Below, piece after piece: positions 1-32,481 of a stretch of 32,481 nucleotides of DNA. The stretch covers positions 1 to 32,481 of the forward strand of contig NZ_MPRJ01000015.1 of the NCBI RefSeq assembly GCF_002020805.1. Direction: 5' to 3'. The notes beneath the pieces are model-generated. The model saw only the letters and a program-made list of their open reading frames with translations. It had not been told where the DNA came from and made no database searches. The DNA comes from Solemya velesiana gill symbiont. GTDB taxonomy: Bacteria > Pseudomonadota > Gammaproteobacteria > Chromatiales > Chromatiaceae. The position numbers and the translations under genes are program-made. Position 1 is the first letter of the stretch, and each line of letters begins with the position of its first letter.

Positions 1-1
1 A

Positions 2-70
2 GCCACAAGAGGCTATCGATCACCGAATGAATTATTTATGGGGCGGCAAGTGGATTTGCTTGCTGCCTAA
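2..70 (+). pseudogene. 3' tail of an unidentified upstream reading frame, possibly a transposase
   Basis: An open frame enters from the left edge and ends at TAA 68-70. The visible 22 residues include GYRSPNELF. A Y-x-[ST]-P-x-E segment near the C-terminus is typical of DDE (rve-type) transposases of the IS3/IS481/IS30 kind, so this may be the end of an insertion sequence. No terminal inverted repeat can be verified because the element is cut off by the window edge. Its end lies six bases before the apparent start of the methylase, which looks N-terminally shortened. Identity is uncertain; it could be the end of any upstream gene. Confidence 0.3.
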
Positions 71-75
71 TTGAA

Positions 76-1929
76 TTGCAGTTATTACTTGAAACCGCCT
101 TTGTCGTTGAAGACTTCATTGTAATTATCGAGGACAAGAAAGAGACTCGGCTTACACGTTTCCTCAAAGAGGAAGAAATCACCACTGAATTCCCGTATCG
201 GCAAGACTATGCGCTCAATGGAGCTGTCCACTATGCGAACGCGATGATGCGTAATGGTATTCCACACGATAAGGGGATTTTTGCAGTTGGCGTTGGTGGT
301 GACGAACTCCACCACGAGATATCTGTGGCTTTCATTGGCTCAGGGATAATCAAGCACCTTGATGACCTAGACAACCTTGATGTCTTCGCCAAGGACGCGA
401 TAGGTGAATACCACTCAGTCGCCGTGCTCGGAAACAAGCCGCTTGCAGAAATCCGGCTTGATACAGTCAAGGAAGCAGCATCGAAGCTGCACGAAGGGAT
501 GCGGAACTATGGTTCTGTAGAGAATGACCGAAAAGCCCCACTCGTTTCAGCGATCTTGCTAGCTTTGGAAAAACCTGGCTTCGATGTTGATGACCTGAAG
601 GGTGCGTATGACGAGGATCTTCCCGATGACTGGGACGGAGCCAAGATCTACAAAGCGGCTCACGCCTACATGCTCTCGAAAGGCTTTGGTCCACAGCAAA
701 AAGTCGGTACCTTGCTTGACCAGTTCGCTTTTATCGAAAAGGCTCCAGCGTTAAACCGGGTGCATACCGAACTAGGTATGACGCCGTTAAAGTGGTTTGC
801 CCGAATTTTGAAGTCTGACGTACAAAGAGTGGTGACAGACCCTTCACTGAGTTCTTTCGACGTACTTGGCAACTTCTATCATGAGTTTATTTCATACGGA
901 GGCGGTGACGGAAATACGCTCGGCATTGTTCTAACGCCAGAGCATGTAACAACGTTAATGGCTGAGTTGATCGATGTGGGTTCTGGCGATTGGGTTTTGG
1001 ACCCAACAGCAGGCACAGCATCGTTCCTTATTGCAGCAATGCATCGAATGTTCAAGGATGCAGGAGACAATGATGGGGTGAAGGACGATATCCGTGAGAA
1101 TCGCCTTCACGGAATTGAACTCCAGGATAAGCTTTTCGCTATTGGAACCACGAATATGATTCTGCGTGGCGACGGAAAGGCAAACTTTCGCCGCGACTCT
1201 ATCTTCGAGGCGCCACTACACGAAATGCGTGGCGACCAACAAGATGAAAACGGCGAGTGGATACCAGGGCATGGATTTACGAAAGTGCTCTTAAATCCCC
1301 CGTACTCACAAGCAAAAGACAAAACAACCCGTCACCTGTCTGAGCTCTCATTTATTGAGAAGGCATTGACATTTTTGAACACTGGCGGCCGAATGGCAGC
1401 GATTGTTCCTCAGTCTGCAATGGTTGGTAAAACCAAAGAGGATAAGGAGCGAAAATCCCGGATTCTCAAGGAGAATACCCTCGATGCTGTGATCACTTTG
1501 AATGGTGCAACATTTGCTGACTCGGGGGTTGGAGTTCACCCAGTGATAGTGCTGTTTACGGCAGGTAGAAAGCACCCAGAAGATGCGATGGTTAAATTCG
1601 TCAACTTTCAGAATGACGGCTACAAGGTGCAAATGCATCGTGGGCTAACAGATGATGGCACCGCAGCGTCCCGAAGAAAGCACTTGCTTCAAGTGCTACG
1701 AGGAGACGTGATTGAGGATACGCGCTTCATAGTGCGTTCGGAGGTGATTGCTGCGGACGAATGGCAACATTCGTACTTCTACTTTAATGACCAGCCTCCG
1801 GCCTATGATGACTTCATGGAAACGGTCGCAGACTACTTATCGTGGCAGGTTGACATGCATGTGCATGGCTATGGCGATCTCATTAAGCCAGCCAGCGAAG
1901 AAATTGGCATCAAGGATGGTGAGGAATGA
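76..1929 (+). CDS. N-6 adenine DNA methylase with N-terminal nuclease remnant (BcgI A-like), probably 5'-truncated
   Basis: This is an adenine methyltransferase of the HsdM/BcgI A class. Motif I DPTAGTASF lies near residue 309 and the catalytic motif IV LNPPYS near residue 407. The N-terminus carries VIIEDKK (residues 16-22), the E-x-K part of a PD-(D/E)XK nuclease site, but the upstream half of that fold, including the conserved Asp, is absent. The only start is a TTG at 76 with no Shine-Dalgarno sequence, and the frame is open back to a stop at 28-30 without ATG or GTG. I infer that the 5' end was removed, perhaps by the mobile element ending at about 70. Type IIB A subunits combine nuclease and methylase in about 640 residues and pair with a B specificity subunit of about 340; the 617 + 363 aa arrangement here fits. 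Methylation may survive while cleavage is lost. A type I HsdM is the alternative. Confidence 0.8.
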   Translation: MQLLLETAFVVEDFIVIIEDKKETRLTRFLKEEEITTEFPYRQDYALNGAVHYANAMMRNGIPHDKGIFAVGVGGDELHHEISVAFIGSGIIKHLDDLDNLDVFAKDAIGEYHSVAVLGNKPLAEIRLDTVKEAASKLHEGMRNYGSVENDRKAPLVSAILLALEKPGFDVDDLKGAYDEDLPDDWDGAKIYKAAHAYMLSKGFGPQQKVGTLLDQFAFIEKAPALNRVHTELGMTPLKWFARILKSDVQRVVTDPSLSSFDVLGNFYHEFISYGGGDGNTLGIVLTPEHVTTLMAELIDVGSGDWVLDPTAGTASFLIAAMHRMFKDAGDNDGVKDDIRENRLHGIELQDKLFAIGTTNMILRGDGKANFRRDSIFEAPLHEMRGDQQDENGEWIPGHGFTKVLLNPPYSQAKDKTTRHLSELSFIEKALTFLNTGGRMAAIVPQSAMVGKTKEDKERKSRILKENTLDAVITLNGATFADSGVGVHPVIVLFTAGRKHPEDAMVKFVNFQNDGYKVQMHRGLTDDGTAASRRKHLLQVLRGDVIEDTRFIVRSEVIAADEWQHSYFYFNDQPPAYDDFMETVADYLSWQVDMHVHGYGDLIKPASEEIGIKDGEE

Positions 1930-3017
1930 AATCTTTCGAGAAACTGACCTTTGCACCAATGTATGTGATCAACGTTGAAGGGGAGCAGGATGGTTTATTT
2001 CACGCTCACAAAGGGAAACGTTTGATAGCGGCACATAGAAAATCCGGGGCAACCCCGTTTGTTGGGGCCTCTAGAATTAACAATAGCATTACTGATTTTG
2101 CAGATACGCCCGCGTTATTCCCTGGGGGGTGGGTGACATTAATCTATAATGGCGATGGCGGGACAGGGCATGCTAAGTACCAACCCGCTCCGTTTAGCGC
2201 ATCGGATGATGTAATCGCGCTTGAGCCAATATCGAATGATGCCACCAAGCCCGCCCTACTGATGATAGCGAGCATGCTAACGCAGCAGTGCGTGCCCAAG
2301 TTTGGATTTGGATACAAACTCACGCTGCATCGCTTGGGGCGTCAAAAGATTATGATCCCTGCGAAGACCAACGCCCGTGGCAAGCAGGTCGTAGACTGGA
2401 AAGGAATAACGCGGCTGGGTCAAGATTTGATCCACTTTGCTGGAGAGCGTGCTGCAAAAGCTAGAGTATCATCACCAAAAGAGAATGCCGCCTCGGATGA
2501 ATTTGCCTTTGAGCCGATGCTGATTACCGATGTTTTTGAGTCGATGAAGGCGTCATCAGCTTGGTACGACAAGTCGAAATTAGCTCTATCAGGTGAGAGG
2601 CGATATCCGTTCGTGTCTCGGACTCGTGAAAGCAACGGGATCGATGGGATATGCGTTCGTCAGGAAAAGAACCCTGAACCAGGAAACGCAGTCACGATCG
2701 GGTTGGACACCCAAACTGTTGCATACCAACCTGTGGCTTTTTACACGAGCCAAAATATCCAAGTGCTCCGCCACGAGCATCTTAATGCTGACAATGCCCT
2801 CGTTTTATCAACGTTGATCAAGCAGCAAATGAGTAAGTTCAGTTGGGGAGGAAACGGCGCTACGCTAGGTCGCTTGCGAAAAACACATATCTTGGTGCCA
2901 ACTACAACCAGCGACTCCGGCGAACGGGCCATCGATTGGAAAGGGATGAACCGTTATGGAAGAGCGCTTCGCGTTAGAGCCGAAAAAAGCATGGGTGCTG
3001 CGCTGAAAACACCTTGA
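1926..3017 (+). CDS. Restriction-modification specificity subunit (BcgI B-like)
   Basis: This is the DNA-recognition partner of the preceding methylase. Its ATG overlaps the methylase stop in an ATGA junction, so the two are translationally coupled. The 363-aa protein is built of two similar halves. A segment at about residues 125-165 (KFGFGYKLTLHRLGRQKI, then VDWKGITRLGQ) recurs at about 304-345 (KFSWGGNGATLGRLRKTHI, then IDWKGMNRYGR). Such duplicated target-recognition domains are expected for a subunit reading a bipartite site. No HsdR-type translocase follows, which favours a type IIB over a type I system. The recognition sequence cannot be predicted from the protein alone. Confidence 0.75.
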   Translation: MKSFEKLTFAPMYVINVEGEQDGLFHAHKGKRLIAAHRKSGATPFVGASRINNSITDFADTPALFPGGWVTLIYNGDGGTGHAKYQPAPFSASDDVIALEPISNDATKPALLMIASMLTQQCVPKFGFGYKLTLHRLGRQKIMIPAKTNARGKQVVDWKGITRLGQDLIHFAGERAAKARVSSPKENAASDEFAFEPMLITDVFESMKASSAWYDKSKLALSGERRYPFVSRTRESNGIDGICVRQEKNPEPGNAVTIGLDTQTVAYQPVAFYTSQNIQVLRHEHLNADNALVLSTLIKQQMSKFSWGGNGATLGRLRKTHILVPTTTSDSGERAIDWKGMNRYGRALRVRAEKSMGAALKTP

Positions 3018-32345: not shown

Positions 32346-32400
32346 GTCTCACCTCCATAGGCGTTACCGGGACGTCCGTTGCAAGAGGCGGTTTCGGATA

Positions 32401-32474
32401 ATAAGTGCAATTGGTAGTTGAAGGGCCAGCTGGTAGAGTCGGCGCTTCTCCCGACCAAGAGACGAAGCACTTAT
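32401..32474. other. Inverted repeat enclosing a hairpin, upstream of the integrase
   Basis: ATAAGTGC (32401-32408) and GCACTTAT (32467-32474) are perfect inverted copies 58 bases apart. Inside lies a GTCGG/CCGAC hairpin (32439-32443, 32451-32455). The segment is upstream of the integrase gene. It could be a structured leader, an operator pair or a recombination-related site. It is not a tRNA: it lacks a T-arm and the hairpin is in the wrong place. Confidence 0.35.
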
Positions 32475-32481
32475 GAGCTAC

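What the first reader, a model, noticed from the sequence alone, without database searches (positions are those of the whole stretch)
1..1929. BcgI-like methylase apparently truncated at its nuclease end, beside a mobile-element tail
The E-x-K half of a PD-(D/E)XK site is present, but the start is a TTG without ribosome-binding site just six bases after another reading frame ends. Loss of the nuclease N-terminus would turn a self-contained type IIB system into a methylation-only (epigenetic) system.
Basis: partly seen in the sequence, partly recalled or inferred. Interest (0 to 1): 0.5.

Follow-up and report, generated by a model that had tools for sequence, protein, structure and literature searches.

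The report
Restriction gene split by inserted element
A bacterial gene for an enzyme that both cuts and marks DNA has been split in two by a jumping element, which almost certainly ends the cutting; whether the marking still works cannot be told from sequence, and events of this kind are ordinary.

Summary
The window is contig C35 of a 128-contig draft genome. Bases 1-99 are the right end of a repeated mobile element (tentatively IS30-like) present at 19 contig-end junctions; its left end is at 18. The missing N-terminus was found on contig C84: 56 residues (MGNEKATDQF...GKPEFVF) running straight into the element's left end. Stub and body share one codon, TTT, matching the element's 3-bp target duplication, and align back to back with intact relatives (L023; Sau42I of phage phi42). 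A BcgI-like type IIB gene was thus split inside its PD-(D/E)XK site: the PE half is on C84, the ExK half in the window. The N6-methylase domain and the S subunit are intact.

The odd TTG start lies inside the element; two of its three outward frames offer a TTG, so it signals no design. Loss of cutting is a strong inference. Methylation-only function is possible (about 0.3) but untested: no promoter-like site or ribosome-binding site was seen, and IS6110 in another type IIG gene (mamB) went with lost methylation. Two further broken relatives turned up, so such breakage is not rare. Interest is low.

The parts
1..99 (+). right end of a repeated mobile element (tentatively IS30-like), cut by the start of the contig
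   Evidence: 97-100% identical at 18 other places of the genome; common end ...TTGCAGTTATTACTTGAAACCGCC at 19 junctions, each with 94-99 element bases at a contig end
2..70 (+). putative C-terminal tail of the element's transposase, ATRGYRSPNELFMGRQVDLLAA*
   Evidence: translation; by-eye resemblance to the tail of an IS30-family match on contig C6
100..102 (+). TTT, second copy of the 3-bp target duplication; the first is the last codon of the stub on contig C84
   Evidence: both junctions read; 3-bp duplications supported over all junctions, 10 of 18 shared 3-mers against 4.39 +/- 1.67 in controls
76..1929 (+). remainder of the BcgI-like A (nuclease-methylase) gene; 76-99 is element sequence, gene sequence starts at 100
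   Evidence: PADLOC PDLC03602, E 4e-179, from model position 55; 80-84% identity to relatives
130..138 (+). E-D-K, second half of the PD-(D/E)XK nuclease site
   Evidence: E-D-K invariant in 6 of 6 aligned sequences
856..1656 (+). N6-adenine methylase domain, with DPTAGTASFL (from 1000) and NPPY (1294-1305)
   Evidence: Pfam PF02384, E 1.1e-27; motifs conserved in relatives
1926..3017 (+). S (specificity) subunit gene, intact, its ATG overlapping the A stop codon
   Evidence: Pfam Methylase_S, E 2.9e-39, two stretches; full length, 63-70% identical to three relatives; overlap

Best explanation
A BcgI-like type IIB restriction-modification operon (A = nuclease + N6-methylase, then S) was interrupted by a repeated mobile element at A codon 56, between the PE and ExK halves of the PD-(D/E)XK site, with a 3-bp TTT duplication. 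Shown: both junctions, the shared TTT, the open methylase and S frames, and a single A gene in the draft. Inferred: the physical order C84 - element - C35; loss of DNA cleavage, because no single frame holds both halves of the site; and little or no methylation, because the remainder has lost its own start and promoter. So it most likely works as an inactivated R-M system, with residual methylation the main open question.
For: The N-terminal 56 residues are on C84 at 86% identity to L023 and run into the element's left end, the frame stopping 4 codons later. Against Sau42I A the stub covers residues 8-60 and the body 60-638. 3-bp duplications over all junctions: 10 of 18 shared 3-mers against 4.39 +/- 1.67; 4-mers 2 against 1.57. 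One match only for A and one for the stub in the genome. No promoter-like site in 1-400, no ribosome-binding site before TTG 76. IS6110 in mamB: two isolates without MamB activity (PMC7591249, passages).
Against: No contig or read spans the element, so adjacency is inferred. TTT also flanks one other right end and one other left end, so the triplet alone does not prove the pairing. The draft is 84% complete, so a second A gene could be missing from it. The promoter scan is a simple consensus scan. Methylase and S frames are undamaged, which fits a recent insertion but also a retained methylase. TspGWI nuclease-site mutants keep methylation.
Confidence: 0.65

Rival explanations
1. Methylation-only system: transcription through the element and translation from TTG 76 (or a later start) give a nuclease-less A that still methylates a bipartite site together with S.
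For: Methylase motifs and S intact; an in-frame TTG lies 5 bases after the putative transposase stop and the frame runs on into A; TspGWI point mutants at D58, E72 and K74 lost cleavage (all listed but E72D) and kept methylation (PMC2700111, passages); in BsaXI one REase domain is partly or wholly unresolved in the DNA-bound maps (PMC11997821, passages).
Against: Two of three outward frames of the element offer a TTG, so the in-frame start is expected by chance; no promoter-like site in 1-400; S overlaps A and probably depends on its translation; TspGWI cases are point changes, not loss of 56 residues; IS6110 in mamB went with lost methylation.
Confidence: 0.3
2. Assembly artefact: the gene is intact in the cell and the element was joined to it wrongly.
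For: Short-read draft broken at repeats; no spanning contig.
Against: Two independent contigs end in opposite ends of the same element at the same codon, sharing a triplet of the length that the element duplicates; no intact copy in the draft.
Confidence: 0.03
3. The two pieces assemble in trans into a working nuclease.
For: Both pieces keep their motif residues.
Against: The break lies inside the nuclease site; the stub has only 56 gene-encoded residues. I searched for no precedent.
Confidence: 0.02

Closest known systems
Sau42I, BcgI-like R-M system of Staphylococcus phage phi42 (X94423, locus L087)
   Same: A subunit 44% identical over the body, stub matching residues 8-60; followed by a second gene overlapping A
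   Different: A is uninterrupted in phi42. That Sau42I is BcgI-like is taken from a reference title (PMC6532042, passages) and the record title
Intact operons in Winslowiella iniecta B120 (L024), a gammaproteobacterial MAG (L023), Sphingopyxis sp. LC81 (L025) and a plasmid of Arthrobacter sp. YC-RL1 (L060)
   Same: A 80-84% (L023-L025) or 69% (L060) identical, followed by an S gene
   Different: Nuclease N-terminus joined to the rest in all four
IS6110 insertion in mamB (type IIG) of M. tuberculosis (PMC7591249, passages)
   Same: An insertion sequence in the gene of a methylase of the R-M fusion type
   Different: Methylation was measured and lost there; here unmeasured. Insertion site in mamB not read
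Macrococcoides caseolyticum plasmid p19Msa1047-1 (L086)
   Same: IS30-family transposase gene 279 bp from a truncated A-like methylase gene
   Different: Similarity starts only at residue 309 of the query and S is annotated as two pieces

Membership tests
BcgI-like type IIB R-M system | A subunit with N6-methylase motifs DPxxGT and NPPY | tested here: met
BcgI-like type IIB R-M system | separate S subunit with two recognition regions | tested here: met
   two Methylase_S stretches; aligns over its length with three relatives
BcgI-like type IIB R-M system | uninterrupted PD-(D/E)XK nuclease site at the A N-terminus | tested here: not met
   PE half on C84, ExK half in the window, element ends at both junctions. 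The pre-insertion gene had both; the present allele is a broken member
BcgI-like type IIB R-M system | cuts on both sides of a bipartite site and methylates it | not testable with these tools
   no activity or methylation data
Methylation-only (orphan) methylase | active methylation without a cognate nuclease | not testable with these tools
   needs m6A calling
IS30-family element | transposase recognised by the family model | tested here: inconclusive
   no transposase body is held for the element; NCBIfam NF033563 matched only C67, C62 and C6, none of them a contig of the 19 right junctions or 18 left junctions; tail resemblance by eye
IS30-family element | imperfect terminal inverted repeats and 2-3 bp target duplication (definition recalled) | tested here: met
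   ends GGCGGTTTCGGATAATAAGTGCAA and GGCGGTTTCAAGTAATAACTGCAA, 4 mismatches in 24; 3-bp duplications. Other families share these features

The most novel reading that the evidence does not exclude
One insertion turned a BcgI-like system into a methylation-only one: the element takes away the first half of the nuclease site and also supplies transcription and a re-initiation start (TAA, 5 bases, TTG) for a nuclease-less A subunit, so that the cell keeps the methyl mark without restriction.
Probability: 0.15. Interest if true: 0.4.

Novelty: new member of a known kind. Interest (0 to 1): 0.15.

Why it matters
It explains an odd start codon as an insertion junction and shows how a short-read draft can present an element-interrupted R-M gene as a truncated methylase. 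It also offers a concrete allele for testing whether losing the nuclease by insertion leaves a working methylase.

Tried and rejected
Structure: prediction of the intact relative L023 A with a 5-row alignment gave mean pLDDT 33.4, so I make no claim about the fold and ran no fold search. Deepening the alignment from viral contigs gave none (518 pattern stretches, 0 confirmed).

Element name: its 99-base end and 22-aa tail found no match in plasmids. A 64-base match in G011, in 2 of 55 genomes with a match (own included), has no transposase frame beside it. IS30-like is therefore tentative.

Prevalence of nuclease-less forms: 369 genomes of the class gave 4 with a match at E <= 1e-40, own included. 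Of the 5 matches outside the own genome, 4 start at query residue 1-3 (one with an internal TAA) and one (G281) aligns only from residue 304, inside a 783-aa frame. This is too few to state a prevalence.

Considered and rejected: assembly artefact; the TTG as an evolved start; a stub from a second gene (one match each for stub and body).

Paper searches: five terms, 1 paper; at least 2 of 4 terms, 24 papers, 20 listed, abstract starts seen; listings. No claim of absence in print is made. Papers seen as passages only: PMC3874165, PMC11997821, PMC6211672, PMC2700111, PMC4027205, PMC1892151, PMC6532042, PMC7591249. Two BcgI papers are not held.

Full report
What the window is. The window is contig C35 (32,481 bp) of a 2.55-Mb genome in 128 contigs, 84% complete. 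Its first 99 bases match 18 other places at 97-100% identity. The 24-base end repeat, searched with up to 3 mismatches, occurs 19 times, all exact, this one included. At each of the 19 junctions the contig holds only 94-99 bases of the element and then ends, as expected where a short-read assembly breaks at a repeat. The element's other end is at 18 junctions, C84 included; one is the far end of the window itself (32387-32477, minus strand).

The missing N-terminus. Five relatives came from genome contigs. Four (L023-L026) have an uninterrupted A frame of 659-716 aa as listed, sharing NEKATDQFVRDLLRD and GKPEFVFV; the fifth (L027) is broken, see below. The first 56 residues of L023, searched in the window's own genome, gave one match: C84:92-259, minus strand, 86% identity, no stop. 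On that strand C84 reads ...GGAAAGCCCGAGTTTGTGTTT and then GGCGGTTTCGGATAATAAGTGCAATTGG, the element's left end; the frame stops after 60 codons. The window reads ...GAAACCGCC and then TTTGTCGTTGAAGAC. The stub ends with a TTT codon and the body starts with one; intact L023 has one Phe there, F56. Against Sau42I A of phage phi42 the stub aligns to residues 8-60 (35% identity) and the body to 60-638 (44%).

Is TTT a target duplication? Over all junctions, 19 right and 18 left flanks share 10 of 18 3-mers, against 4.39 +/- 1.67 at 1,369 offset positions (fraction reaching 10: 0.002). For 4-mers the figures are 2 and 1.57. So the element duplicates 3 bp. TTT also flanks one other right end (C111) and one other left end (C123); the pairing of C84 with C35 therefore rests on the protein match more than on the triplet.

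What was broken. E-D-K is invariant in 6 of 6 aligned A sequences, and PE is present in the 5 that reach that far. The element lies between the two. In the type IIB enzyme BsaXI, alanine at E73, D90, E105 or K107 of the nuclease domain abolished cleavage (PMC11997821, passages). No single frame here holds both halves, so loss of cutting is a strong inference, not a measurement. The methylase domain is complete (Pfam N6_Mtase, E 1e-27; DPTAGTASFL and NPPY). S is full length and 63-70% identical to three relatives; its ATG overlaps the A stop.

Could it still methylate? For: in TspGWI (type IIG) the listed substitutions at D58, E72 and K74, except E72D, removed cleavage and kept full methylation (PMC2700111, passages). 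Against: those are point changes, whereas here 56 residues and the native start are gone. TTG 76 has no recognisable ribosome-binding site, and two of the element's three outward frames have a TTG after their last stop, so an in-frame TTG is expected by chance. No promoter-like site was found in 1-400, against 0.7 expected in shuffles, a scan of low power. BcgI A alone has neither activity (PMC1892151, passage), so S is needed too. In two M. tuberculosis isolates with IS6110 in the type IIG gene mamB, MamB was inactive (PMC7591249, passages). I put methylation-only at 0.3, and the version in which the element itself drives it at 0.15.

Other broken relatives. On a Macrococcoides plasmid an IS30-family transposase gene lies 279 bp from a truncated A-like methylase gene, with S annotated as two pieces (H20, the one opened of four records with that match). 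In a betaproteobacterial MAG (L027) the A frame matches to residue 145 and the contig then runs into 140 bases found identically at the starts of two other contigs; residues 354-658 are on a further contig, and 146-353 were not found. Neither case looks like a preserved nuclease-less methylase.

Surroundings. On C84 the stub follows a 589-aa gene whose relatives lie just upstream of A in L023 and L027. It has no Pfam match above the curated score and NCBIfam matches below cut-off to the IS1 transposase (41 bits, cut-off 100) and the IS1/IS1595 zinc domain. Of the 15 plasmid relatives listed, 5 are called 'insertion element protein' and 6 'hypothetical protein'; the other 4 have no annotated feature. 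Pieces also lie on C53 of the same genome. It is probably transposase-like; its part in the spread of this operon is a guess.

Verdict.

Noticed in passing
window 32387-32481: The far end of the window is the left end of another copy of the same element, in the same orientation, so contig C35 is bounded by the element on both sides.
   Followed up: partly
L059 315-2084 (-), that is G000:C84: A 589-aa zinc-ribbon, transposase-like gene directly before the A stub; relatives sit just upstream of A in L023 and L027.
   Followed up: partly
L027 5260-5408 and L093 (genome G422): A second interrupted A gene of the same subfamily, in a betaproteobacterial MAG, at a 140-base repeat found at two other contig ends.
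   Followed up: partly
L086 1768-4830: Macrococcoides plasmid with an IS30-family transposase gene beside a truncated A-like methylase gene and an S gene annotated as two pieces.
   Followed up: no
L021, the end of G000:C111: The element sits beside a short tandem repeat, TTTCTTGTG.
   Followed up: no
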